64,000 nt of DNA from a virus, in IMG/VR virus record IMGVR_UViG_3300021963_009388, positions 1 through 64,000 of that record; one strand, written 5' to 3'. Positions 1,159 to 63,638 of the stretch are shown here, one piece after another. The notes under the pieces were generated by a model. It was not told the DNA's origin. It did not search any database and saw only the letters and a program-made list of their open reading frames with translations. The stretch's first letter is position 1. Every line of letters begins with the position of its first letter. The translations under genes and the position numbers were made by a program.

Positions 1159-1414
1159 TTTTAACCAATGGGCAGTAGGCAAATCCCTAGAACAGATGCT
1201 TACTATCTTCTTAACAAACCGTTTAATAAGAATAGGCGACAAAGACATATGGCCGTCATCCATCGTAGTTAACGGATGCCACTATGAGTTCGTATTCAGA
1301 GTGGGCAACGAGCTAGATGAAGATAGAGGGTGGTGGTCTTTTAAAGATGAGCCTATGGTGTACAGCATCATGGCTACTGAAGAAGACATGCTAAGAGTAA
1401 GGGAAAAATTATGA
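1151..1414 (+). CDS. Hypothetical protein upstream of the microgene array
   Basis: An 87-residue acidic, tryptophan-containing protein. The ATG at 1151 is preferred over the upstream TTG at 1139 in the same frame. Its TGA stop overlaps the ATG of the first array unit (ATGA), so the Trp/Ser array is translationally coupled to it. No recognised domain; function unknown. Confidence 0.6.
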   Translation: MDDFNQWAVGKSLEQMLTIFLTNRLIRIGDKDIWPSSIVVNGCHYEFVFRVGNELDEDRGWWSFKDEPMVYSIMATEEDMLRVREKL

Positions 1415-1590
1415 TAAGAAAAACAAATGCACATCCTATTTCTAAAGAATGGGAAAAATCTCGACTGTGTTCATGGATTAGTGGGTGGAGCACGTTTGAT
1501 TACAAATCAGCAAACGGAAAATTAAATTACACGTTTTCTGCACTAAACAATTGGTTTCATCACTCTCGTTGTTGGGGGGAGAGACCATGA
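1411..1590 (+). CDS. Array unit 1, Trp/Ser microprotein
   Basis: 59 residues, starts MIRKTNAH, five tryptophans. Its start overlaps the preceding stop (ATGA). It is less repetitive than later units but keeps the family start and SW/GW pairs. The GGGGGGAGAGA near its end serves as ribosome-binding site for unit 2. Confidence 0.7.
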   Translation: MIRKTNAHPISKEWEKSRLCSWISGWSTFDYKSANGKLNYTFSALNNWFHHSRCWGERP

Positions 1591-1790
1591 TAAGAAAAGT
1601 AATCGAATCTTCATCTTGGGGCTGGACTAGATCTGACCGAATTAGTTCGGCTCTGTCTAAATACGGCCGACGTACTATTCATTCTATTTGTTGGACTATG
1701 GCTAGAGATTCGTTTTGGGTTCACTTCGGGGCTTGGTCTAAGTCTAAGCATCAGTCTAGGTCGGGCCCTTGGTATGAAAGGGCTAGATAA
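1587..1790 (+). CDS. Array unit 2, Trp/Ser microprotein
   Basis: 67 residues with six tryptophans. Overlaps unit 1 by 4 bases. It is a near full-length relative of unit 27 (7800-8006): both contain a WTRSDR segment, HSICW, RDSFW, FGAW and SGPWYER in the same order, showing duplication of a whole unit across 6 kb. Confidence 0.75.
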   Translation: MIRKVIESSSWGWTRSDRISSALSKYGRRTIHSICWTMARDSFWVHFGAWSKSKHQSRSGPWYERAR

Positions 1791-1939
1791 TGATAAGAAA
1801 AACACAACCTGCGTCTGTGGCTTGGGCTTGGTCTAGGTCTGGGTCTAGTTCTTGGTCTTGGTCTTGGCCTGGGTTTAATTCTTGGTCTTGGTCTAAGTCT
1901 AGGACTAATTCTTGGTGCTGGGAAAGGACCTCTCGATAA
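1790..1939 (+). CDS. Array unit 3, Trp/Ser microprotein
   Basis: 49 residues, nine tryptophans, nearly pure Ser-X dipeptide repeat (SWSWSW blocks). The start uses a TAATG overlap with the stop of unit 2. A clear example of the hexamer-driven units. Confidence 0.7.
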   Translation: MIRKTQPASVAWAWSRSGSSSWSWSWPGFNSWSWSKSRTNSWCWERTSR

Positions 1940-1989
1940 TAAGAAAAACAGTATGGGGTAAATCTAAGAGTTGGAGGATAGGAAGATGA
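1936..1989 (+). pseudogene. Array unit 4, start-codon-less remnant
   Basis: The family start appears here as ATAATAAGAAAA, so the ATG is replaced by ATA. The frame then reads IRKTVWGKSKSW, the same opening as unit 6, and ends after 18 codons. Either a remnant left by an internal deletion or a unit using a very weak start. It still provides GGAGG for unit 5. Confidence 0.5.
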
Positions 1990-2240
1990 GAATGAAATCA
2001 GTGTGGTGTGGGTCTAGGTCTTGGTCTAAGTCTAGCTTGTCTACTCCTATGATTGAGCCTCGCGCGTCTCAGTCTTGGTCTAGGGCTGGATGTACACCTG
2101 AGGCTTGGTCTGAGTTTGGCTCTTGGTCTAGAGCTTTTCATAAATGTAGGTATACGTGGTCTAATTGTTGGAGCCGTCTTGGGAATAGACTTGCGTATGC
2201 ATGCTGGCAAAAATCTTGGAATTGGAGAATACACCAATGA
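1986..2240 (+). CDS. Array unit 5, Trp/Ser microprotein
   Basis: 84 residues, the longest intact unit, with ten tryptophans. It starts MRMKSVW rather than MIRK. The stop is inside the ATGA of unit 6, and the final codons (AATTGGAGA) include the GGAGA used by unit 6. Confidence 0.7.
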   Translation: MRMKSVWCGSRSWSKSSLSTPMIEPRASQSWSRAGCTPEAWSEFGSWSRAFHKCRYTWSNCWSRLGNRLAYACWQKSWNWRIHQ

Positions 2241-2422
2241 TAAGAAAAACAGTATGGGGTAAATCTAAGTCTTGGAGCTGGGCGGAGGCCATATCGGGGA
2301 CTGGGTCTTGGGCTTGGTCTCGGACTTCGTTTAACTCTTGGTTTAGGCCAGGGGTGGTACCTTGGTCTAGGTCTTGGGTAAATCTAAAAGGAAATTCCGG
2401 CGCTTGGAGAATACACCAATGA
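2237..2422 (+). CDS. Array unit 6, Trp/Ser microprotein
   Basis: 61 residues, nine tryptophans, starts MIRKTVWGKSKSWSW. It shares its first dozen codons with remnant unit 4 and its last codons (WRIHQ) with unit 5, showing mosaic assembly from shared segments. ATGA overlaps at both ends. Confidence 0.75.
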   Translation: MIRKTVWGKSKSWSWAEAISGTGSWAWSRTSFNSWFRPGVVPWSRSWVNLKGNSGAWRIHQ

Positions 2423-2487
2423 TAAGAAAAACAGGGTCTTGGTCTGGGTCTTGGTCTGGGTCTAAATGTTGGGAGAGCAGACTATGA
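2419..2487 (+). CDS. Array unit 7, very short
   Basis: Only 22 residues with three tryptophans: MIRKTGSWSGSW followed by a CWESRL end. It has the family start and ATGA junctions at both ends. It may be an internal-deletion derivative that remains in frame. Confidence 0.55.
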   Translation: MIRKTGSWSGSWSGSKCWESRL

Positions 2488-2669
2488 TAAGAAAAACAGT
2501 ATGGTTTGGGGCTGCGTCTTGGACTGACTCTTGGCGTGAGTCTGATTCTTGGTCTAAGTCTTTTAGCTGGTATAGATCTAGGGCTGGGTGCTGGGATGGG
2601 TCCAATTCTTGGAGTTGGACTTCTTCTAGATGCTTGGATAAATCTAAGAGTTGGGGGATAGGCCGATGA
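2484..2669 (+). CDS. Array unit 8, Trp/Ser microprotein
   Basis: 61 residues, nine tryptophans. Its first 23 residues (MIRKTVWFGAASW then SWRESDSW) match the intended product of frameshifted unit 29 at 8170. Ends with the GGGGGAT used as ribosome-binding site by unit 9. Confidence 0.75.
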   Translation: MIRKTVWFGAASWTDSWRESDSWSKSFSWYRSRAGCWDGSNSWSWTSSRCLDKSKSWGIGR

Positions 2670-2869
2670 TAAGAAAAATAAGGACCCATGAATCAAAGTG
2701 CTGGACAGATAGAAGACCTACATCATTCTCAGCGAACTATTACTTTATAGATCGTTCATGGAACTGGGGGTGGCAGCATTGTATGTCATCTCCTTGGTTA
2801 GGTATAGGCGGCTGGTGCAATAGTCTAAGCTCAGGAGGGTGGAGTTTAAACTATTGGAGAAACATTTGA
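2666..2869 (+). CDS. Array unit 9, diverged
   Basis: 67 residues with eight tryptophans but little DNA-level hexamer repetition. Serine and glycine codons are varied, yet SW, GW and PW pairs remain. This is good evidence that the protein pattern, not only the DNA repeat, is maintained. The stop overlaps the next ATG by one base. Confidence 0.75.
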   Translation: MIRKIRTHESKCWTDRRPTSFSANYYFIDRSWNWGWQHCMSSPWLGIGGWCNSLSSGGWSLNYWRNI

Positions 2870-3060
2870 TGATAAGAAAAATAGTCATATCCGGGTCCGT
2901 TTCATGGACAAATGATTTTGTCCGCAATAACAGGTGTTTTTTAAGCGACATGATGGCGGCATTTTCGTACATGAACACATCCACTAGGTCTGGAATTGGA
3001 AGTCAGAGCAACCGTGGTTGGTCTGTTTTAAGATCGCTGTCGTGGTCCAAACACCGATAA
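2869..3060 (+). CDS. Array unit 10, diverged
   Basis: 63 residues with three tryptophans, starts MIRKIVISGS and ends LSWSKHR. The middle is unlike other units. It is followed by an 18-base gap, one of the few places in the array without stop/start overlap. Confidence 0.7.
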   Translation: MIRKIVISGSVSWTNDFVRNNRCFLSDMMAAFSYMNTSTRSGIGSQSNRGWSVLRSLSWSKHR

Positions 3061-3077
3061 CCTAACTAGGAGAACCA

Positions 3078-3299
3078 ATGATCAAAAGTACAGTTGGAAA
3101 CACTATGGCCCAAGGGTATAGCCGTGCATGGGGAACATTAAGTCGTACATGGGGCTTAACAAGCAGTGGTTCGTTTACAGAATCTAAAGTGCGTTCTACT
3201 ACAAAACTGTGGCGCGGCTGTAGAGGAGTAGTATGGTCTAGTTTAACTATATCTTCTTCGTCATGGAGCAGTAGATTTTCAGGGTCCGTAAGGAGCTAA
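3078..3299 (+). CDS. Array unit 11, diverged
   Basis: 73 residues, starts MIKS rather than MIRK, with its own AGGAGA ribosome-binding site. Five tryptophans in AW/TW/LW/VW/SW pairs with mixed codons and almost no TCTNGG hexamer. Ser/Thr content is very high. Confidence 0.7.
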   Translation: MIKSTVGNTMAQGYSRAWGTLSRTWGLTSSGSFTESKVRSTTKLWRGCRGVVWSSLTISSSSWSSRFSGSVRS

Positions 3300-3300
3300 C

Positions 3301-3495
3301 ATGATAAGAAAACTTTTGTATCCATTGCATCAAAGTAAGATGTCCGTCTGCTGGACTAAGGACAAAAAGCTGAATAGGCTCTGGTCAGAAAACACGACCA
3401 TATCTGGACACAAGCATAGTGGTATAACGTGGGCTTGGGCTCACTTCAATCGCTTGCCTTGGTCCATATTAGAACCTTGGAGAGTTATTTCATGA
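3301..3495 (+). CDS. Array unit 12, diverged
   Basis: 64 residues, six tryptophans, starts MIRKLLYP with AAGGAG upstream. It begins one base after the stop of unit 11 and its stop sits within the start region of unit 13. Confidence 0.7.
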   Translation: MIRKLLYPLHQSKMSVCWTKDKKLNRLWSENTTISGHKHSGITWAWAHFNRLPWSILEPWRVIS

Positions 3496-3647
3496 TGATA
3501 AGAAGAAGAATACACCCACTTGATTCATCTAAATCATGGTCTGATCCCTGGTGTTACTCTTTGTCCGGGTCTGAAGATTATGCTTACTCTGTGTCTTGGT
3601 CGAATTGGTGTCAATGGGGTAAAAATAGTCACTCGGTTGGTTTTTAA
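3492..3647 (+). CDS. Array unit 13
   Basis: 51 residues, five tryptophans; starts with two adjacent ATG codons (3492, 3495) then IRRRIHP. The SKSWS...YS.S.S.SW region resembles unit 14, suggesting the two are a local duplication that has diverged. Confidence 0.65.
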   Translation: MMIRRRIHPLDSSKSWSDPWCYSLSGSEDYAYSVSWSNWCQWGKNSHSVGF

Positions 3648-3669
3648 ATAGGCTTTGGAGAGGTCGCTA

Positions 3670-3849
3670 ATGATACTAAAACGCAAAGCATACTTAATTG
3701 GAGACGTCTCCAAATCTTGGTCTGAGCCTTATTCTTACTCTGTGGCTTGGGCGGATGACTGGAGATGGAGTAGAGATTGGAAGAACGGTTGGTTTTTAAA
3801 CACGTTACGAGCCTACTATAGGCAGTCTAAAGGAGGACCTCGTGGTTGA
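3670..3849 (+). CDS. Array unit 14
   Basis: 59 residues, six tryptophans. The ATG at 3670 follows GGAGAGG with good spacing, so it is preferred over the TTG at 3655. The opening MILKRKAYL departs from MIRK. It contains one of the eight dispersed palindromes (3698-3713), read as Gly-Asp-Val-Ser. Confidence 0.65.
   Translation: MILKRKAYLIGDVSKSWSEPYSYSVAWADDWRWSRDWKNGWFLNTLRAYYRQSKGGPRG
3698..3713. repeat. Dispersed palindrome copy 1
   Basis: TTGGAGACGTCTCCAA: the shared 10-bp core GAGACGTCTC with two compensating outer differences from GTGGAGACGTCTCCAC, still a perfect palindrome. Located in array unit 14. Confidence 0.75.
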
Positions 3850-4084
3850 ATGGAAACCTACTGAATATGATATAGGATGGCTGGACTCAGTCTTTAGAAT
3901 ATTAAAAGAAGGCGGGTCATGGATAGCTCCTATCACAGGGCAGATGTTTGAAAAACGAGGAAACCTTTTCGTTCTAATGAACGAAGATACTCCTGACACA
4001 AGACGCATCTTTGAGAGAAGCCAAGTAATAGGGCCTAAGATTGGTATTAAAGTTATTAAACTATCGGAGGTGGATAGTGCTTAG
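3842..4084 (+). CDS. Non-array insert: GGxWxxPxTG-type small protein
   Basis: An 80-residue protein with a GTG start after AGGAGG. It lacks the Trp/Ser pattern: a helical N-terminus, then EGGSWIAPITGQMF near residue 24 and a basic/hydrophobic C-terminus. It overlaps units 14 and 15 and so belongs to the same transcript. Its presence among the microgenes suggests a functional partner or cargo gene. I have no firm family name for it. Confidence 0.6.
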   Translation: MVEWKPTEYDIGWLDSVFRILKEGGSWIAPITGQMFEKRGNLFVLMNEDTPDTRRIFERSQVIGPKIGIKVIKLSEVDSA

Positions 4085-4241
4085 ATCCCGTATGCATATG
4101 TCTCAATCCTGGTCTTGTGGGCGAAGCGCATCAAGAGCAGCATCAGATTTTTGGGGAGTATCCAATATTTTTGCTGGATGCTACTCTTGGAGCTGGGTAA
4201 ATAACTTGTCGATTTCAGAAAATTTTATGGAGTTTGAATGA
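4077..4241 (+). CDS. Array unit 15
   Basis: 54 residues from a GTG start preceded by GGAGG; ATG codons at 4092 and 4098 are alternatives. Four tryptophans (SW, FW, SWSW). The start overlaps the stop of the 3842 gene, and the stop sits in the ATGA of unit 16. Confidence 0.6.
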   Translation: MLRSRMHMSQSWSCGRSASRAASDFWGVSNIFAGCYSWSWVNNLSISENFMEFE

Positions 4242-4435
4242 TTAGAAGAACAGCAACAATCCCAGCTAGTTGGTTTGGTGCTTCTAATGCGTCCTGGGCT
4301 GTACTCCATATAGCAACATGGGGAAGGCCGTCATCGCCAAGGTTTCAATCAACTTCCCATTCACAAAGCTGGTATAGGTCTAGCAGCTGGGAAGATGATG
4401 GTTCTGCTAGTTACAATTGGAAATTAAGGAGGTAG
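4238..4435 (+). CDS. Array unit 16
   Basis: 65 residues, six tryptophans, starts MIRRTATIPASW. Serine before Trp is written with AGT, TCC and AGC codons, evidence for protein-level conservation. It ends two bases before the DUF6745-like gene. Confidence 0.75.
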   Translation: MIRRTATIPASWFGASNASWAVLHIATWGRPSSPRFQSTSHSQSWYRSSSWEDDGSASYNWKLRR

Positions 4436-4436
4436 T

Positions 4437-5033
4437 ATGAAAAACAAAGGATATGAAGCTTGGGTGGCGCGACTCAAGTTCTTCAACGGGGAATTCAATT
4501 TTGGCCCCGTTAAGCGCGTCTTAAATGAAGACGGGCGACTGCACTGCGACACGGGTCCAGCGTATGTTAGTCCTACTCGTATTATGTGGTATAAGAACGG
4601 CAGGCAGCACGGAATGGACGCCGACAAGTTCGGCAGTATTCTGTACTATTACGAGGGGGTGCGTATTCCTCCACATTTCTTTACCAAACCAGAGGATGTC
4701 ACTGTAGAGGAGGTCTTAAGGCATCCTAACGCAGAAGTAAAATATGTTGGTATGAAGATAGTTGGGCTGGACAACATCATGTCTATGCCTACAACAAAAG
4801 TAGTGCATAGAGACGTGGATCAGTTCGGCAGAGAAAGAGTTCTCTTTCAGATCCCAAAGATCTTTGAGGAACCAACTCTTTATGTTAAAGTTGTTAATTC
4901 TACGGCGGAGCCAGATGGTAGTTTTAAAAATTACTTTCTGTGCGTCCCGCCAAACGTGAAAACGTGTGTCGAGGCGGTGGCGTGGACAAACTATATGAAG
5001 GCAGATAAGTATGCTCCTTCACAAGAATCTTAG
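4437..5033 (+). CDS. DUF6745-like protein
   Basis: 198 residues, start preceded by AAGGAGG. Features that recall DUF6745: an EDGRLHCDTGPA segment followed by WYKNGRQHG near residues 40-60, a YYYEGVRIPPHFF segment, and a C-terminal VKVVNSTAEPDGS...VPPNVKTCVEAVAW block. The family is usually hypothetical and the biochemical role is not known to me. It interrupts the array between units 16 and 17 and is followed by the 5055 gene, suggesting an accessory module that travels with the microgenes. Confidence 0.65.
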   Translation: MKNKGYEAWVARLKFFNGEFNFGPVKRVLNEDGRLHCDTGPAYVSPTRIMWYKNGRQHGMDADKFGSILYYYEGVRIPPHFFTKPEDVTVEEVLRHPNAEVKYVGMKIVGLDNIMSMPTTKVVHRDVDQFGRERVLFQIPKIFEEPTLYVKVVNSTAEPDGSFKNYFLCVPPNVKTCVEAVAWTNYMKADKYAPSQES

Positions 5034-5054
5034 TTTTAATCAAAGGAATTAGTT

Positions 5055-5381
5055 ATGAAGAAGTTTCAAGCGCGTCAGGGTGATATTTTCTTTAGGGTTG
5101 TTAAGAAGCCAGCGGGCTTAGCTAAGCTAAAGCCATTGGGCAGTAAGATATTGGCGTTCGGCGAGGTGACTGGCCACAGTCATCAAATTACTTCAGCAAA
5201 TGAAGTGGGTTCTTTTGTAGATGAGAAAGGAGATATCTATCTCTTCTCTGCAGAGGAGACTGTCGTGGGTCATGACGAGCACTCAAATATTACGCTCCCT
5301 AAGGGATCGTGGGTGTGCGTGACACGTCAGCGAGAGTATGATCCGCTAGCTGCTGAGAAAGAGCGAAAGGTAGCAGACTAG
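5055..5381 (+). CDS. RQGD-motif small protein
   Basis: 108 residues, beginning MKKFQARQGDIFF and containing FGEVTGHSHQI near residues 36-46. The layout suggests a small beta-rich fold. I associate such short RQGD proteins with DUF6745 neighbours, but this is recollection rather than a search. The TAG stop overlaps the GTG start of array unit 17, so they are translationally coupled. Confidence 0.6.
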   Translation: MKKFQARQGDIFFRVVKKPAGLAKLKPLGSKILAFGEVTGHSHQITSANEVGSFVDEKGDIYLFSAEETVVGHDEHSNITLPKGSWVCVTRQREYDPLAAEKERKVAD

Positions 5382-5620
5382 TGATAAGGAAAGCACTATT
5401 TGGAAACTCGTATAACTGGAGCTTATCAAGCTCCAGTTATAACGTTTCAGAAGTAAGAGATACATTCTACGGATCAACTACTTCGTTCTCTTGGCCTAAC
5501 TGTCCTTGGATGTTTTCCACTAGCTGGTCTTCTTCTGGACTAGCCTGGTCATGGAATTGGTCAGGTGGAGTGCATACATCTTGGGGTTGGAAAGAAGGAA
5601 ATGCAGTGTGGGACAGTTAA
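5381..5620 (+). CDS. Array unit 17
   Basis: 79 residues from a GTG start, reading MIRKALFGNSYNW, with ten tryptophans. Codon positions 11-21 include a perfect 14-bp inverted repeat (5411-5424 with 5428-5441, 3-nt loop), which could form a stable mRNA hairpin just after the start. Followed by an intergenic terminator. Confidence 0.7.
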   Translation: MIRKALFGNSYNWSLSSSSYNVSEVRDTFYGSTTSFSWPNCPWMFSTSWSSSGLAWSWNWSGGVHTSWGWKEGNAVWDS

Positions 5621-5676
5621 GGGTGGAGTCTAAGTAATTAAAATATTGTTAGCTATATAGACAAGTTTAGCTTACG

Positions 5677-5707
5677 GGGGTAGCAGATGTTCTGCTGCCC
5701 CTTTTTT
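5677..5707 (+). terminator. Strong Rho-independent terminator
   Basis: GGGGTAGCAG pairs with CTGCTGCCCC (one wobble) around ATGTT, followed directly by TTTTTT. This splits the array transcript between unit 17 and the 5737 gene. Confidence 0.9.
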
Positions 5708-5736
5708 GTTTGAATCACATTCAAGGAGTTGTAATT

Positions 5737-6054
5737 ATGGCTAAGGTTAAAAGCAAAGTGTCTTTAGTTGAGATCGATGGCGCAGCTGCAGCTAGCATGG
5801 CGCAAGTGGCACAGCAGTTTCTTGGGCAGCCGGTAGCGGTGTTATGTGCGCGGTACAACTACCGTGGGATTCTATCTCACGTGGGTGAAGATTGCTTGGT
5901 GCTTGCGCAAGCAAGAGCTGTCGAGACTTCTGGCGCTTCTAGTCAAGAAACACCGAACACTGAAGATCCGATTGGATCTTCTGTGATCATCTCCCTCGGT
6001 GCAGTCGAAATTATTTATCAACCAAGATGGTGCTTTGCACCATTGGATGCGTAA
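5737..6054 (+). CDS. Small beta-rich hypothetical protein
   Basis: 105 residues from the ATG at 5737, placed correctly after AAGGAG; an upstream in-frame ATG at 5710 is inside the terminator trailer and less likely. The core (PVAVLCARYNYRGIL, then GEDCLVLAQA and a C-terminal EIIYQPRWCFAPL) looks like a compact beta-barrel, possibly Sm-like; that is inference only. The stop overlaps the ATG of array unit 18. Confidence 0.65.
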   Translation: MAKVKSKVSLVEIDGAAAASMAQVAQQFLGQPVAVLCARYNYRGILSHVGEDCLVLAQARAVETSGASSQETPNTEDPIGSSVIISLGAVEIIYQPRWCFAPLDA

Positions 6055-6302
6055 TGAGGACGCATACTAGACCGGGAAGGCCTTTTGACAACCCAATTCT
6101 AGGCCCGACTTTTTCGTGGACGCAGGATAAGTTACATGGCTGGCCCTACCCTGCTAAGTCCTGCGAATGGGCAAGGGGAGTGAGATTTAATAGGGCTTGG
6201 AAATCAGCTGAGTTTCTATCCATATCAACACTGAATAGGGACTCAAGCTATTCTTGGTCTAAGGGAATCCGAGGGTCTATAAAGACAAGGAACGGAGAAT
6301 GA
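6054..6302 (+). CDS. Array unit 18, diverged
   Basis: 82 residues, starts MRTHTRPG, five tryptophans, with few hexamer repeats. Coupled to the 5737 gene by a TAATG overlap and to unit 19 by ATGA. Confidence 0.65.
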   Translation: MRTHTRPGRPFDNPILGPTFSWTQDKLHGWPYPAKSCEWARGVRFNRAWKSAEFLSISTLNRDSSYSWSKGIRGSIKTRNGE

Positions 6303-6472
6303 TAAGGAAAATAGTACACGCTAGGACCAGATCTTGGGCTAATTATACGTATCAATCTTACTCTGGAACTTGGATCAAACCTGGTTGTCCTTGGGGAATA
6401 AATATGCCTTGGTCTTGGTCTTGGTCTTGGTGTAGACCTTGGAGTATGGAATCTTGGAGGACACCCCGATGA
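6299..6472 (+). CDS. Array unit 19
   Basis: 57 residues, nine tryptophans including a PWSWSWSWC block. MIRKIVHAR start and ATGA junctions. The C-terminal SWR codons include the GGAGG that serves unit 20. Confidence 0.7.
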   Translation: MIRKIVHARTRSWANYTYQSYSGTWIKPGCPWGINMPWSWSWSWCRPWSMESWRTPR

Positions 6473-6714
6473 TAAGAAAAATAAGAAGAAGCACTGGAAT
6501 TGGAAAAGACTGCGAGGTTTCTAGTCTTTGGTCTAAGAGTTGGACTCTATCTGAGTCTGGGCGCCCAGGTGAGTTCAGTTCTAGCAATTGGGCTCAGTCG
6601 GAGGCTTTTCCTAGATATAACACAGAAAGGCACTTGTCTGAGTCTTCGACATCTTGGCGTTATAACCGGCATGACTCTTGGTATGACTTTTGGCATTGGA
6701 AGGATAACACATGA
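6469..6714 (+). CDS. Array unit 20
   Basis: 81 residues, seven tryptophans, starts MIRKIRRSTG. The C-terminal half is charged (RYNTERH, RYNRHD) with SW/FW/HW pairs. Overlaps both neighbours by ATGA. Confidence 0.7.
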   Translation: MIRKIRRSTGIGKDCEVSSLWSKSWTLSESGRPGEFSSSNWAQSEAFPRYNTERHLSESSTSWRYNRHDSWYDFWHWKDNT

Positions 6715-6893
6715 TAAGAAACGCATGGACTGGGTCATCATACGCTTGGTCTACTTCTGGATACACGTCATGGGGCTTAACTAAGTATCGCCCTTCTCTA
6801 ATGCAGTCTGACCATTGGAATCATAATTGGTGTTTCAGTGGATGTTGGGCTGAAGATACAGACATGTCAGGCTCTTGGAGGATGCACATGTGA
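6711..6893 (+). CDS. Array unit 21
   Basis: 60 residues, seven tryptophans, starts MIRNAWTGSSYAW. Contains NWCFSGCW with two cysteines. Its last codons (TCTTGGAGG) carry the ribosome-binding site for the GTG-started unit 22. Confidence 0.7.
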   Translation: MIRNAWTGSSYAWSTSGYTSWGLTKYRPSLMQSDHWNHNWCFSGCWAEDTDMSGSWRMHM

Positions 6894-7114
6894 TAAGAAG
6901 AGCATTGCTCGGTAAATCTGGTTCTTGGATTAAATTTCGATCTGAGTCTGAGTTTTTGTACTCAACAATTTGCTCCCAAGCTTGGAGTATGCCCTATGAT
7001 GGGGCTAATGCTTGGACTAGCTCTTGGCGTAAGTCTTCGAGTTGGGTTGGAAGAAGGTTTGGCTCCAGGTTTGACTCCAGGCCTGACTCCAGGTCTTGGA
7101 GGCATCAAATATGA
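6890..7114 (+). CDS. Array unit 22
   Basis: 74 residues from GTG, reading MIRRALLGKSGSWIKF, six tryptophans. Its ICSQAWS.PY segment and following pattern match broken unit 31 at 8525, so it preserves the intact version of that gene. The C-terminus has an SR/DSR repeat. Confidence 0.7.
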   Translation: MIRRALLGKSGSWIKFRSESEFLYSTICSQAWSMPYDGANAWTSSWRKSSSWVGRRFGSRFDSRPDSRSWRHQI

Positions 7115-7299
7115 TAAGAAGACCAGTGACAACAAATGGGCGCTCCCAGTGTTGGGCTAGAGATCAAGAAATGTCTTGGAGCGAAAGAAGGTATACGCCT
7201 TGGCCGCGTTATGCAGAGTGCTGGATACTGGAGTGGTGCTGGAGTGGGCTTTGGGAAACTGATGGAACCTACTCGGAGTTATGGGGGGAAAATATATGA
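7111..7299 (+). CDS. Array unit 23
   Basis: 62 residues, eight tryptophans, starts MIRRPVTTNG. It is acidic at the C-terminus and low in TCTNGG hexamers, with W pairs mostly CW/LW/EW. The stop overlaps the next ATG. Confidence 0.7.
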   Translation: MIRRPVTTNGRSQCWARDQEMSWSERRYTPWPRYAECWILEWCWSGLWETDGTYSELWGENI

Positions 7300-7490
7300 T
7301 AATGATAATGAAATGTCTACCTGACGCTAGGCTCCGAGATAGGCCCATCTCCCAGTCTTGGACTCTAAACCGGCATTGGTCTAGGGCTATGTTCTTGCCT
7401 TGGTCCAGCATCAATGTTTGGTTTTGGTCTGATTCTTGGAGTATAGACGAGACCTGCTCAGATTCTTGGATGCGGAGGAATAACGAATGA
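7296..7490 (+). CDS. Array unit 24
   Basis: 64 residues with three possible in-frame starts (MIMIMK). Seven tryptophans. An FLPWS segment recurs in unit 32. Ends with GGAGG before the ATGA of unit 25. Confidence 0.65.
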   Translation: MIMIMKCLPDARLRDRPISQSWTLNRHWSRAMFLPWSSINVWFWSDSWSIDETCSDSWMRRNNE

Positions 7491-7642
7491 TAAGAAGATT
7501 TATATTTCCTAAGTCTGAGTCTTGGTCTCAAAACGGGAGTTGGGGTTCCAACTCTGGGCTTAGAATTTATAGCTCGGCTTGGAGCATAGAAGAATTCTGG
7601 TCTACGTGTTGGGCTATGGAGCGAGACTGGAGTAATAAATGA
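7487..7642 (+). CDS. Array unit 25
   Basis: 51 residues, starts MIRRFIFPKSESW, six tryptophans. ATGA overlap at both ends. The C-terminus CWAMERDW resembles the CW.M.RDS region of units 2 and 27. Confidence 0.65.
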   Translation: MIRRFIFPKSESWSQNGSWGSNSGLRIYSSAWSIEEFWSTCWAMERDWSNK

Positions 7643-7803
7643 TAAGAAAAGCGTTGTCTAGTTCTTGGTCTAGGTCTAAGTCTAGCTCTTGGTATAGTGC
7701 TAGGTCTTGGCCTGTGCATTTGTCTTGGTCTAGGTCTATGTCTAGGTCTATGTCTTGGTCTTGGTCTTGGTATGGGGATAGTCCTTGGAGGGCACACAGA
7801 TGA
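7639..7803 (+). CDS. Array unit 26
   Basis: 54 residues, eight tryptophans, almost purely Ser-X repeat (SWSRSKSSSW, then a SMSWSWSWY run). The DNA is dominated by TCTNGG hexamers. The C-terminal PWRAHR codons include GGAGG for unit 27. Confidence 0.7.
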   Translation: MIRKALSSSWSRSKSSSWYSARSWPVHLSWSRSMSRSMSWSWSWYGDSPWRAHR

Positions 7804-8006
7804 TAAGAAAAGCAAGTGAACATGGGTCTTGGAGCTGGACTAGATCTGACCGCCTTAGTTCAGATATGTTTAGCCCCCACTCTGGTATTCATTCTATTTG
7901 TTGGGCTATGACTAGGGATTCGTTTTGGACTCGCTTCGGGGCTTGGTGTAAGTCTAGGCATCGATCTGAGTCTGGCCCTTGGTATGAAAGGACTCGTAAA
8001 TGGTAA
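7800..8006 (+). CDS. Array unit 27, copy of unit 2
   Basis: 68 residues, seven tryptophans. Aligns along most of its length with unit 2 (WTRSDR, HSICW, RDSFW, FGAW, SGPWYER). Ends TGGTAA, overlapping the ATG of unit 28. Confidence 0.75.
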   Translation: MIRKASEHGSWSWTRSDRLSSDMFSPHSGIHSICWAMTRDSFWTRFGAWCKSRHRSESGPWYERTRKW

Positions 8007-8173
8007 GAAAAACAAAATGTATTTTTGCTACGACTTTTTCTAAAGGTTGCGCTAGAGCTTATTCTTGGTCTAAAAGTTTTCCTAGGAATGGGTCTAGGGT
8101 TTGGTATAAGTTCGAGTCTGGGTCTTGGACTAATACTTGGGAAAAGTCTAGATGCTGGAGAAGCTCTCGATGA
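8000..8173 (+). CDS. Array unit 28
   Basis: 57 residues, starts MVRKTKCIF (ATA changed to GTA), five tryptophans. It overlaps unit 27 by 7 bases. The C-terminal RCWRSSR codons carry GGAGA for the next start. Confidence 0.65.
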   Translation: MVRKTKCIFATTFSKGCARAYSWSKSFPRNGSRVWYKFESGSWTNTWEKSRCWRSSR

Positions 8174-8374
8174 TAAGAAAAGCAGTATGGCTTGGGGCTG
8201 CGGCTTGGGGCTGCGGCTTGGTCTGAGTCTTGGCGTGAGTCTGAATCTTGGGTCGAAGGTGAAAGATGGCCTCAATATAGATTTAGGGCTGATTTACTTG
8301 ATGTGTCTAAATCCTGGAGTCGGGATAGGACTCGGTATTGGAGTAGGTCTTTAAATTGGAGTATACGACGATGA
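8170..8374 (+). pseudogene. Array unit 29, frameshifted by a 13-bp duplication
   Basis: The frame opens MIRKAVWLGAAAW but stops after 18 codons. The 13-mer CTTGGGGCTGCGG occurs twice in tandem (8191-8203 and 8204-8216). Deleting one copy restores MIRKAVWLGAAAWSESWRES and an uninterrupted frame to 8374, matching unit 8. This is a recent replication-slippage or recombination event. Confidence 0.85.
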
Positions 8375-8520
8375 TAAGAAAAGCTAACAACGGCTATCCC
8401 GTCTGGGATTGGCCTGGCTCTATAAGCTGGAAAAGGCCTTCGGCTAAATCGTCTTCTTGGTCTAGGTGCTGGGCTCTATCTTCTGTGTGGCGTACACGTA
8501 ACCCTAACCGTTGGGGATAA
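8371..8520 (+). CDS. Array unit 30
   Basis: 49 residues, starts MIRKANNGYPVW, seven tryptophans, ends RNPNRWG. The start overlaps the stop of the restored frame of unit 29, not its premature stop, which supports that frame as ancestral. Confidence 0.7.
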   Translation: MIRKANNGYPVWDWPGSISWKRPSAKSSSWSRCWALSSVWRTRNPNRWG

Positions 8521-8524
8521 ACAA

Positions 8525-8725
8525 ATGATGAAAAACACGTTATCTGCTAGGTCTAATTCTTGGATTTAATTTTGGAGCGAGTCTGAGTCTTTGTCATCGG
8601 TAATTTGCTCCCAAGCTTGGAGTGTTCCCTATGCTGCGTCTAGGATGTGGGCTAGCTCTTGGTGCGAGTCTTCGGGTTGGGGTAGAAGAAATTTTGACTC
8701 CAAGTCTTGGAGTAGTAGCTTATGA
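8525..8725 (+). pseudogene. Array unit 31, nonsense-interrupted
   Basis: Starts MMKNTLSARSNSWI then hits TAA at 8567-8569. The same frame continues open to 8725 with SESES, ICSQAWS, PYAAS and SSWCES, aligning with intact unit 22. Where unit 22 reads ATT AAA TTT, this unit reads ATT TAA TTT. The downstream remainder keeps the family pattern. Confidence 0.8.
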
Positions 8726-8889
8726 TAAGAAAAACAGGGTGTTGGTATAAATATAAGTCTTGGTCTAAGTCTAGGTCTTGGTTTCGGAGTAAATCGGCGT
8801 CTGTGTTTGGGTCTTTGTTCTTACCTTGGTCTAGGTCTTGGCATTGGAATAACTCTATAGGTAACTTTAGCTCTAGCCCTTGGGAGTAA
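8722..8889 (+). CDS. Array unit 32
   Basis: 55 residues, seven tryptophans, starts MIRKTGCWYKYKSW and has a Ser-X core. Ends TAATAA, seven bases before unit 33. Confidence 0.7.
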   Translation: MIRKTGCWYKYKSWSKSRSWFRSKSASVFGSLFLPWSRSWHWNNSIGNFSSSPWE

Positions 8890-8895
8890 TAACGA

Positions 8896-9021
8896 ATGAT
8901 TAGAAAAGCGTGGAAAGGGCCTAACTCGTCTAGGTCTTGGTATTTTTGGAATTGGAGTCTAGGTCTCACCTGGTCTAGATGTTGGTCTATGGAACTGGTC
9001 TGGTGGAAAAAACAACGATGA
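8896..9021 (+). CDS. Array unit 33
   Basis: 41 residues with eight tryptophans, one in five, including a VWWKKQR end. Starts MIRKAWKG; the stop overlaps the ATG of unit 34. Confidence 0.65.
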   Translation: MIRKAWKGPNSSRSWYFWNWSLGLTWSRCWSMELVWWKKQR

Positions 9022-10770: not shown

Positions 10771-10785
10771 TATACTGATAGCAAC

Positions 10786-11256
10786 AAGGCAGGCGTGGTC
10801 CGGCGAGGCCGGTCGAGGCGTGGCGAGGCAGGCACGGCGGGGTCTGACGAGGCAGCTCGGGGCGGGGCGAGGCATGGCAGGCGAGGCGTGGCGCGGTCCG
10901 GCTGCGATCGGCTTGGCAGGCTAGGTGAGGCGCGGCCTGTTCGGGCGAAGCGCGGCAGGCATGGTGCAGTTTGGCGTGGTTAGGATCGGCAGGCGGGGCG
11001 AGGGCTGGCGCGGCGTGGCCAGGCGAGGCATGGCAGGCGAGGTTAGGCCGGGTGAGGTTAGGCGAGGTGCGGCACGGCAGGCTAGGCAAGGCGCTGTCCG
11101 GCTGGGCTCGGAATGGCGAGGCAGGCGTGGTACGGCAGGCGAGGCGTGGCGGAGCCCGGTGAGGTGCGGCAGGGCAGGCACGGCCAGGTGTGGCACGGCC
11201 CGGAGAGGCCTGGCAGGCACGGCAAGGCACGGCTAGGCTGTGTTGGACTAGGGCAG
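10786..11256 (+). repeat. G-rich NNNGG pentamer repeat
   Basis: About 470 bp made almost entirely of five-base units ending in GG (CGAGG, CGTGG, CACGG, TGAGG), with frequent four-base CAGG units that shift the phase. The + strand is strongly G-rich and the tract is much higher in GC than its surroundings. Frames on both strands are open here only because the repeat lacks stops; their products are Arg/Gly or Ala/Pro low-complexity, so I do not call genes. Confidence 0.85.
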
Positions 11257-14778: not shown

Positions 14779-14825
14779 ACTGTCAAGTTAACACAACACT
14801 CGTTAGCTTGGCAGTTTTTAAAATT
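14779..14825 (+). terminator. Terminator candidate after the 13908 gene
   Basis: ACTGTCAAG and CTTGGCAGT pair (one wobble) around a 19-nt loop and are followed by TTTTTAAAATTT. Confidence 0.6.
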
Positions 14826-14836
14826 TAAAAGCAATA

Positions 14837-14892
14837 GGGCCGTATGTGGCTGGGCAAGGCAAGGCAAGGGCAAGGCAGGGTGAGGCAAGGTA
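14837..14892 (+). repeat. Second short G-rich island
   Basis: About 56 bp of GGGCAAGGCAAGG-type sequence, a smaller counterpart of the 10786-11256 repeat, lying in the gap before the inverted-repeat cassette. Confidence 0.7.
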
Positions 14893-14969
14893 GATTATTT
14901 AATGTACTATTGGGCCAACGTATAGCCCTTTTAGATTGTGTTAGGTGCCAAATCATGTATATAAATCAC

Positions 14970-15004
14970 TGCACTTAATTCATTATATCTAAGATATAAT
15001 AGTA
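14970..15004 (+). repeat. Left 35-bp inverted repeat
   Basis: Outer end TGCACTTAATTC; the inner part includes GATATAATAGTA, which also resembles a -10 promoter element (TATAAT) reading into the ORF. Perfect reverse complement of 15477-15511. Confidence 0.9.
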
Positions 15005-15029
15005 CAAGAAATATAAGAGGTTAATAAAA

Positions 15030-15473
15030 ATGTTAAGATGCATAGTTTTAAAAAATCATAAGAATCGCAGTCATGAAAATAGAATGAAATATTCTAGAAG
15101 TCCTAGTTTTATTCGGATTAGGGCTACTAAACTTCAGGTGTTTCTAGGAGATCACCACATAACAGCCATAGATGAAGTTAAGAAAATGCTAACTAAAGAA
15201 GGGCTAGACCCGGATGATTTTGATCTTGTGAGCTTTGATTGGTCTGAAGGCCTATTCTTAGATACTTTGTTCTCTAAGCCAAAAGCCTTAAGCATATGGT
15301 ACAAGTGTAAAGAAATAGACATAAGACATTTAAGTGATACAGCCTACAACGAAGGTGATCCTAATGGAGACTTATTTGAAGAGTATGACTTAGATACTTC
15401 TTTATCCGACTATCAAGCTGGATTGAAAGAAGAGTATAAGAAGGATATGAAAGAATATAAAAATGATGAATAA
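15030..15473 (+). CDS. Hypothetical protein in the inverted-repeat cassette
   Basis: 147 residues, AAGAGG ribosome-binding region. The first 30 residues are basic (KNHKNRSHENR); the rest is acidic, with a C-terminal D/E/K-rich helix. No catalytic signature of a transposase, recombinase or homing endonuclease is visible. Unknown function; its isolation between inverted repeats is its main feature. Confidence 0.65.
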   Translation: MLRCIVLKNHKNRSHENRMKYSRSPSFIRIRATKLQVFLGDHHITAIDEVKKMLTKEGLDPDDFDLVSFDWSEGLFLDTLFSKPKALSIWYKCKEIDIRHLSDTAYNEGDPNGDLFEEYDLDTSLSDYQAGLKEEYKKDMKEYKNDE

Positions 15474-15476
15474 CTA

Positions 15477-15511
15477 TACTATTATATCTTAGATATAATG
15501 AATTAAGTGCA
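15477..15511 (-). repeat. Right 35-bp inverted repeat
   Basis: Exact reverse complement of 14970-15004, beginning 4 bases after the ORF stop. Confidence 0.9.
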
Positions 15512-15556
15512 AGCTGTACAGGGTAGTGTACAATCACCTAAAGAGGAGACCCAACT

Positions 15557-15976
15557 TTGAAAAATAAATACAGCCTAGAGTTAGCCCGAATATCTCCAAA
15601 CTCTAATAAGGTAGATGTGGTCGAACTTTCTTTTAATCCAGAAAAGATGAAATCTGTATTCGAAGATTTAGTTGGCGGGCTGGCTGGAGTGATGAAGTTA
15701 GATAATGGATTCTTTATAATATATAACAACTCAGAGTTTACCGAGAATGACCTCGATTTTAACATCGGGGCTTCTTGGTTTATAGCAAAGACTACAAAGC
15801 ACAAAGATATAAAAATTTACGGAAACGTACTGGTGGCTAGCTATAGAGATGAAGACCCAGACACACTAAGAAGCATAGACTTTGATAAACTGTCTACCAT
15901 CTTTAAGGATCAGGATGAACCTGTGGTAGGTGTTAGTTACCAATACAAGTCTTCAATTAACCCTTCAATCAATTAG
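15557..15976 (+). CDS. Hypothetical protein
   Basis: 139 residues from a TTG start 8 bases after GAGGAG. Mixed alpha/beta, no motif recognised. First of a group of four short ORFs (15557, 15986, 16288, 16612) with similar size and spacing. Confidence 0.6.
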   Translation: MKNKYSLELARISPNSNKVDVVELSFNPEKMKSVFEDLVGGLAGVMKLDNGFFIIYNNSEFTENDLDFNIGASWFIAKTTKHKDIKIYGNVLVASYRDEDPDTLRSIDFDKLSTIFKDQDEPVVGVSYQYKSSINPSIN

Positions 15977-50198: not shown

Positions 50199-50227
50199 CT
50201 TAATTCGAGCTAAAATCGCGTCATAAT
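50199..50227 (+). promoter_or_regulatory. Late-type promoter motif, copy 1
   Basis: CTTAATTC, 11-base spacer, GCGTCATAAT. One of four copies with identical 29-bp spacing; drives the 50265 and 50477 genes and probably the structured RNA at 51140. Confidence 0.75.
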
Positions 50228-51501: not shown

Positions 51502-51530
51502 CTTAATTCAGAGGTAAATAGCGTCATAAT
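51502..51530 (+). promoter_or_regulatory. Late-type promoter motif, copy 2
   Basis: CTTAATTC-N11-GCGTCATAAT, immediately after the terminator at 51443-51485; drives the 51614 gene. Confidence 0.75.
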
Positions 51531-62922: not shown

Positions 62923-63288
62923 ATGGATGTTCTAGCTGTACGACAAGAAGAGAAGCTATGGGGCCGCAACCATATCATTCATTTGGATAACTCCTTTCAG
63001 ATCTGCCACATACACATCCTCAAAGGTGGATACTGCTCTAATCACTTTCACCAGCATAAGTGGAATCAATTCTATATTGTCTCGGGTAAGCTGGTGGTTA
63101 TCTGCTACAACCCAGACGGCACTACAAAGAGCACCATCACTCTTAGGCCTACCGAGTGCATTAAGATACCTCCTGGTTTAAACCATAAGTTTGAAGCTTT
63201 AGAAGAGACTGAAGCTTTGGAGATCTATTGGTCTGAGCTATCTGAGCACGATATTGTGCGTACAGACATAGGTGGCATCAAGGCTTAA
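62923..63288 (+). CDS. Cupin-domain protein (sugar-phosphate isomerase-like)
   Basis: 121 residues. EKLWGRNHIIH, then GGYCSNHFHQHKWNQFYIVSGKLVV with the cupin His/His/Glu-type metal site and IPPGLNHKFEALEE as the second motif. Resembles mannose-6-phosphate isomerase C-terminal domains or sugar-epimerase cupins; may supply nucleotide-sugar precursors. Its TAA stop lies inside promoter copy 3. Confidence 0.75.
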   Translation: MDVLAVRQEEKLWGRNHIIHLDNSFQICHIHILKGGYCSNHFHQHKWNQFYIVSGKLVVICYNPDGTTKSTITLRPTECIKIPPGLNHKFEALEETEALEIYWSELSEHDIVRTDIGGIKA

Positions 63289-63312
63289 TTCAGCCCATAA
63301 TAGCGTCATAAT
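63284..63312 (+). promoter_or_regulatory. Late-type promoter motif, copy 3
   Basis: CTTAATTC-N11-GCGTCATAAT, starting within the last codons of the cupin gene, driving the zinc-ribbon gene. Confidence 0.75.
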
Positions 63313-63609: not shown

Positions 63610-63638
63610 CTTAATTCAACCTATAAGTGCGTCATAAT
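63610..63638 (+). promoter_or_regulatory. Late-type promoter motif, copy 4
   Basis: CTTAATTC-N11-GCGTCATAAT; no ORF follows in the remaining 360 bases, so it appears to drive a non-coding transcript. Confidence 0.75.

What the first reader, a model, noticed from the sequence alone, without database searches (positions are those of the whole stretch)
14970..15511. Single-gene cassette between perfect 35-bp inverted repeats
The repeats are identical reverse complements and each holds an internal 8-bp dyad with 3-nt centre. This may be an invertible switch, a non-autonomous mobile gene, or paired insulating hairpins. No transposase is inside.
Basis: seen in the sequence. Interest (0 to 1): 0.75.

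Follow-up and report, generated by a model that had tools for sequence, protein, structure and literature searches.

The report
Phage gene between twin inverted promoters
In an uncultured group of large phages, one small gene of unknown function sits between two exact mirror copies of a promoter-like DNA site; the two copies change together as the phages diverge, which suggests that they recombine with each other, but there is no sign that the gene flips over or moves to other places.

Summary
It is neither chance nor an assembly artefact. Three further distinct phage genomes carry the same gene between their own perfect repeats (38, 62 and 55 bp), always in the same orientation. The arms differ between phages but always match within a phage: 10 of 35 pairs changed on both sides, none on one side only. 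Silent sites differ by 45% between the two closest phages, while each arm differs by one base, the same base in both. The arms are therefore selected, sequence-specific sites, probably kept identical by recombination between them. Each arm holds CTTAATTCA, the box of this group's own promoter (CTTAATYCA-N12-GTCATAAT), plus TATAAT; a terminator lies upstream. No tyrosine or serine recombinase, second copy or empty site was found. Best reading (0.45): a self-contained expression cassette, with the left arm as promoter/operator and the right arm as its inverted twin, homogenised by the phage's recombination system. The invertible-switch and mobile-gene readings are unproven. The protein is an orphan.

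The parts
14779..14819 (+). intrinsic terminator after the upstream gene: 14-bp stem, 9-nt loop, U-run
   Evidence: RNA fold -18.1 kcal/mol, z -6.4; same stem with changed bases in the relative G001, z -7.8
14970..15004 (+). left arm of the inverted repeat (35 bp)
   Evidence: 100% complementary to the right arm; 34/35 identical in G001 while synonymous sites differ by 45%
14974..14982 (+). box CTTAATTCA, shared with the phage's dispersed promoter family
14982..15000 (.). internal dyad ATTATATC-TAA-GATATAAT; its right half holds a perfect -10 hexamer TATAAT (14995-15000)
   Evidence: sequence; dyad kept with changed bases in clade B as ACTATATTC-TAAA-GAATATAGT
15015..15020 (+). ribosome-binding site AAGAGG
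   Evidence: sequence
15030..15473 (+). cassette gene, 147 aa orphan protein; predicted beta-alpha-beta N-terminal part (low confidence), acidic tail
   Evidence: dN/dS 0.05 (window vs G001) and 0.25 (G002 vs G003); no family match; weak models
15477..15511 (-). right arm, exact reverse complement of the left arm; box at 15499-15507 (minus), dyad 15481-15499
15515..15532 (.). TGTACA-N6-TGTACA on the outer side of the right arm; in clade B it belongs to the arms themselves
   Evidence: only such pair in 102 kb; also in G001, G002 (both arms) and G003 (left arm)

Best explanation
A single orphan gene forms its own transcription unit behind a terminator and is bracketed by two inverted copies of one dedicated cis-regulatory site. 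The site has a CTTAA(T/G)TCA box, a dyad holding a -10 hexamer, and often an outer TGTACA pair. The left copy most likely serves as the gene's promoter/operator, pointing inward; the right copy is the same site pointing back into the 3' end of the gene. SHOWN: the arms are sequence-constrained, belong to this locus only, and change in concert. INFERRED: the copies are kept identical by recombination between them (gene conversion, possibly with rare inversion) driven by the phage's own recombination system; the box and -10 act as a promoter; one factor binds both arms. With inward promoters at both ends, expression would survive an accidental inversion. That is a consequence of the model, not an observation.
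For: Four distinct genomes carry the gene between perfect arms of 35, 38, 62 and 55 bp. In the 35-bp core, 140/140 cells pair, 10 pairs changed on both sides, 0 on one side, 0 G-U. Arms are 97% identical between window and G001 against 76% in the adjacent intergenic DNA and pS 0.455. Arms resemble each other within a genome more than the same arm across genomes. In G003 the right-arm inner flank (TAAAAGTATACTAC) differs from G002's at four places and matches G003's own left arm at all of them, as a conversion tract would. CTTAATTCA occurs exactly 8 times in 102 kb: 6 in a dispersed promoter family CTTAATYCA-N12-GTCATAAT running in the gene direction (G000 9:0, G003 0:11, G004 0:6), some straight after terminator hairpins, and 2 in the arms. 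The window arm scores 18.1 against at most 15.6 in shuffles. Terminator upstream of the left arm, conserved in G001. Phage encodes UvsX-like, SbcC-like, DNA polymerase and DnaB-like proteins.
Against: The arms lack the family's GTCATAAT half, and their box-to-(-10) spacing is 2 nt shorter (window) or different (clade B). G001 and clade B arms score no better than background in the promoter scan, and G001 has CTTAAGTCA. No expression data. An antisense-pointing twin promoter has no obvious use. No second orientation was seen, although recombination between the arms should produce one.
Confidence: 0.45

Rival explanations
1. RNA panhandle: in read-through transcripts the two arms pair into a 35-62 bp duplex closing off the gene, which protects the message or is cut by RNase III to release it.
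For: Full complementarity with paired changes; minimum-energy folds of all four cassettes close with the complete arm-arm stem; the stop codon abuts or overlaps the right arm.
Against: No G-U pair and no one-sided change in 140 cells, whereas RNA stems usually tolerate both. The sequence of the arms, not just their pairing, is conserved. A terminator upstream and a -10 inside the left arm would leave the left arm out of the main transcript.
Confidence: 0.2
2. Recombination cassette: the arms are recombination sites or terminal inverted repeats of an ultra-small mobile or invertible element, served by the cassette protein, the host or an unrecognised enzyme.
For: Single gene plus perfect terminal repeats with an asymmetric core and dyad; the site is dedicated to the cassette; a gene weakly similar to the upstream neighbour p274 lies downstream of the cassette in G002/G003, as if one of the two had moved.
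Against: No tyrosine or serine recombinase in five contigs; no second copy, other insertion site or empty site found; no target duplication visible; same orientation in 4 of 4 distinct genomes (chance 1/8 under free flipping); vertical divergence at one locus; the protein has no nuclease or recombinase similarity.
Confidence: 0.2
3. The arms are bidirectional transcription terminators or insulating hairpins.
For: Each arm can form a small hairpin.
Against: Hairpins are A+T-rich and weak (-3.3 and -7.3 kcal/mol), with no T-tract; none of the eight terminator-like hits of the scan lies in an arm; the true terminator lies elsewhere.
Confidence: 0.05
4. Chance or assembly artefact.
For: All sequences are metagenome contigs.
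Against: Same anatomy with different sequences in four assemblies, one found identically in two metagenomes; random expectation 12-15 bp.
Confidence: 0.01

Closest known systems
PeSLs (promoter stem-loop cassettes) of T4-type phages (Arbiol 2010, Comeau 2014; read only as cited in PMC4503421)
   Same: Promoter next to a stem-loop/terminator between small accessory genes; recombination between copies of a regulatory cassette
   Different: PeSLs are many per genome and, from memory, act as direct repeats that shuffle modules; here one dedicated pair, inverted, around one gene. The phage's dispersed terminator-promoter units resemble PeSLs more closely than the arms do.
Mycobacteriophage mobile elements MPME1/2 (PMC3029335)
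   Same: About 0.4-0.5 kb, with terminal inverted repeats, in phage genomes; one small gene of unknown function (the last from memory)
   Different: MPMEs sit at different sites in near-identical phages with an extra 6 bp at one end; here one locus, no empty site, long repeats evolving in concert
Invertible segments (Mu G, P1 C, fim-type switches; own knowledge)
   Same: Inverted repeats around a coding segment
   Different: No cognate recombinase found, one orientation seen, complete gene with own promoter-like site at both ends
Extended start-associated sequences of cluster K mycobacteriophages (PMC3203893)
   Same: 17-bp inverted repeats with variable spacer linked to gene starts
   Different: Imperfect repeats upstream of genes, many copies; they do not flank a gene
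N4 virion RNA polymerase hairpin promoters (PMC4496689)
   Same: Promoter containing a small dyad with a 3-nt loop
   Different: N4's are GC-centred; no ORF in the contig exceeds 1303 aa, so no N4-type giant polymerase was seen

Membership tests
Insertion sequence / MPME-like ultra-small mobile element | terminal inverted repeats around a single gene | tested here: met
Insertion sequence / MPME-like ultra-small mobile element | multiple insertion sites or empty sites in relatives | tested here: not met
   Only this locus in the five contigs and in viral contigs pattern and protein scans; extra single hits were chance
Insertion sequence / MPME-like ultra-small mobile element | recognisable transposase | tested here: not met
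   No Pfam or PHROGs family, no solved relative
Insertion sequence / MPME-like ultra-small mobile element | target-site duplication | tested here: inconclusive
   None visible next to the arms, but no empty site to compare
Site-specific invertible switch | inverted sites around the segment | tested here: met
Site-specific invertible switch | cognate tyrosine or serine recombinase encoded by the phage | tested here: not met
   PF00589 and PF00239 absent from five contigs while control genomes ring; contigs may be incomplete; host Xer not tested
Site-specific invertible switch | both orientations observed | tested here: not met
   Same orientation in all copies found; contigs only, no reads
Phage promoter family CTTAATYCA-N12-GTCATAAT | upstream box CTTAATYCA | tested here: met
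   Exact in window, G002, G003; one mismatch in G001
Phage promoter family CTTAATYCA-N12-GTCATAAT | GTCATAAT at 12-nt spacing | tested here: not met
   Arms have GATATAAT at 10 nt (clade A) or GAATATAGT (clade B)
PeSL | stem-loop terminator with an adjacent promoter, in many copies that recombine | tested here: inconclusive
   Terminator lies 150 nt upstream of the left arm; the arm is not multi-copy
Structured RNA element (panhandle) | compensatory changes preserving pairing, with wobble or one-sided changes tolerated | tested here: inconclusive
   10 double changes but 0 one-sided; four sequences only
N4-type hairpin promoter | giant virion RNA polymerase gene | tested here: inconclusive
   Longest ORF in G000 is 1303 aa, but the contig may be partial; the PF00940 search had no positive control

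The most novel reading that the evidence does not exclude
The cassette is an autonomous genetic unit in which the orphan protein recognises the two dyad-bearing arms and drives their recombination (inversion, conversion or excision): an ultra-small phage element with a new type of DNA-processing protein unrelated to known recombinases.
Probability: 0.12. Interest if true: 0.8.

Novelty: new variant of a known kind. Interest (0 to 1): 0.5.

Why it matters
The arms are a clean natural record of concerted evolution between two short inverted copies in a virus. Every change seen in one arm is also in the other, while silent sites in the gene between them have drifted by about half. That makes a general question testable: how often phage recombination acts on 35-60 bp inverted repeats, and whether it leaves genes flippable. 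The work also defines a promoter motif, and in passing a genome-wide palindrome, for an uncultured phage group whose protein families are mostly unknown.

Tried and rejected
Relatives: the MAG hit L022 is a chance match. Single arm-pattern hits L032/L034/L036/L037/L039 and L046/L047 have no second arm and look like coding sequence. Distant p100 relatives L025-L031 share only p100, without synteny or repeats, so they are not informative empty sites. No phage in the INPHARED collection matches the protein. Protein: two AlphaFold models are weak (mean pLDDT 52 and 58), and Foldseek gives nothing below E 0.001, so no function is claimed; the H-NS Pfam hit (E 0.016) is below its cut-off. No Rfam family in the window. 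Canonical sigma-70 scan: no more hits than chance in the region. The N4-type hairpin promoter idea was considered and dropped. The PF00940 search is uninformative because no control rang. Literature: the original PeSL and MPME papers are not held; no paper on concerted evolution of phage inverted repeats was found.

Full report
OBSERVATION. The window is part of a 102,495-bp virus contig. At 14970-15004 and 15477-15511 lie two 35-bp sequences that are exact reverse complements, 472 bp apart, the only such pair in the window. Each contains ATTATATC-TAA-GATATAAT or its mirror image. Markov-random sequences of the same length give at most 12-15 bp within 2 kb. One 147-aa ORF lies inside, its start 25 nt after the left arm and its stop 3 nt before the right arm.

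RELATIVES. The protein has no match in INPHARED phages, and no significant one in Pfam, PHROGs or the PDB. In IMG/VR it occurs in G001 (L004/L014, 93% identity), G002 (L016) and G003 (L017), at 41-43%; G004 (L019) is identical to G003 over 12 kb although it comes from another metagenome. In all of them the gene is framed by its own perfect inverted repeat: 38, 62 and 55 bp. Gene orientation relative to the neighbours is the same everywhere. A search with the neighbouring p100 gene found no close relative without the cassette.

CONCERTED EVOLUTION. Window and G001 arms differ by one base (TTAATTCATT to TTAAGTCATT), in both arms. G002 and G003 differ by a paired T to G change just inside the core. 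Between the clades, 9 of the 35 aligned pairs differ, always on both sides; with the window/G001 change that makes 10 pairs: 140 of 140 cells are Watson-Crick pairs, with no one-sided change and no G-U. Meanwhile the gene has pS 0.455 and dN/dS 0.05 between window and G001, and dN/dS 0.25 between G002 and G003; the adjacent intergenic DNA is 76% identical and the arms 97%. So the arm sequence is under strong selection, and the two arms do not evolve independently. The length of perfect identity beyond the core varies: outward in G002, through a TGTACA-N6-TGTACA element, and inward in G003. In G003 the inner flank of the right arm carries four differences from G002, all of which match G003's own left arm. 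This is what gene-conversion tracts look like. The phage encodes UvsX-like and SbcC-like proteins and its own replisome. Gene conversion as the cause is an inference; a very strict structural constraint could mimic it.

WHAT THE ARMS ARE. The string CTTAATTCA occurs eight times in the 102-kb contig: in the two arms and in six intergenic places that all read CTTAATTCA-N12-GTCATAAT. This family is present in all five contigs and runs almost only in the direction of the genes (G000 9:0, G003 0:11, G004 0:6, G001 1:5, G002 4:1). Several copies sit directly behind terminator hairpins followed by TTTTTTTAGCTAT. It is therefore very probably this group's own promoter. The arm carries the same box with TATAAT shortly after it; in the window it scores just below the eight family members and above all other sites and shuffled controls (18.1 against 15.6 at most), but the G001 and clade B arms do not. 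So the arms are promoter-like, not members of the family. The left arm has the expected setting: a 14-bp terminator stem 150 nt upstream that is kept in G001, and a ribosome-binding site 10 nt downstream. The outer TGTACA pair, unique to the arms in G000, looks like an operator.

MECHANISM. Shown: paired, sequence-specific, dedicated and concertedly evolving sites around a gene under purifying selection, in one orientation. Inferred: the left arm is promoter/operator; the right arm is its inverted twin; recombination between them keeps them identical. Not shown: any inversion, excision or transposition; no tyrosine or serine recombinase was detected. The one hint of mobility is that p274, upstream of the cassette in clade A, has a weak homologue (E 4e-6; HHalign probability 67%) downstream of it in clade B, so either the cassette or that gene changed place.

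LIMITS. There are four distinct sequences, all metagenome contigs, without reads or expression data. Homologue searches used exact patterns derived from the query and can miss divergent relatives. The recombinase searches cover possibly incomplete contigs. The AlphaFold models are weak and no fold match is significant.

Noticed in passing
window 3699, 9208 (1 mismatch), 16346 (1 mismatch), 20961 (1 mismatch), 31479, 44455, 52784, 60166 (1 mismatch); continues to 100359 in the contig; also G001-G004: A 14-bp perfect palindrome TGGAGACGTCTCCA (often GTGGAGACGTCTCCAC) is dispersed over all five related phage contigs, roughly one per 7-8 kb (G000 9 exact + 6 near in 102 kb; G003 23 exact in 190 kb; the reversed control pattern gives 0-1). 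In genes it falls in all three reading frames and some copies are intergenic, so it is a DNA-level site: parS-like, stoperator-like or segregation site?
   Followed up: partly
window 50199-50227, 51502-51530, 63284-63312, 63610-63638: Phage promoter family CTTAATYCA-N12-GTCATAAT, several copies directly behind a terminator hairpin plus TTTTTTTAGCTATYAG: PeSL-like terminator-promoter units
   Followed up: partly
window 1411-8900: About 16 successive small ORFs all starting MIRK (mostly ATGATAAGAAAA), 18-81 aa, rich in Trp, Ser and Arg (SWSWS, SWSRSWS), built on GGTCTTGGTCTAAGTCT-like DNA; G001 has at least two such starts
   Followed up: no
window 10780-11245 and 14850-14893: Long non-coding G+C-rich tract of degenerate GGC units (GGCAGGCGAGGC...) in a 43% G+C genome; a shorter GGCAAGG tract lies just upstream of the cassette and is also present in G001
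   Followed up: no
L016:6380-7102 and L017:6414-7127: Clade B phages encode a protein with sigma-70 region 4 (E 5.8e-9 and 8.6e-13) about 1.4 kb downstream of the cassette; it could be the factor that reads the phage promoter
   Followed up: no
window 15557-15976: Gene after the cassette (weak DUF3846 similarity) evolves much faster than its neighbours: 62% DNA identity to G001 against 82-89% around it, and not found in clade B
   Followed up: partly
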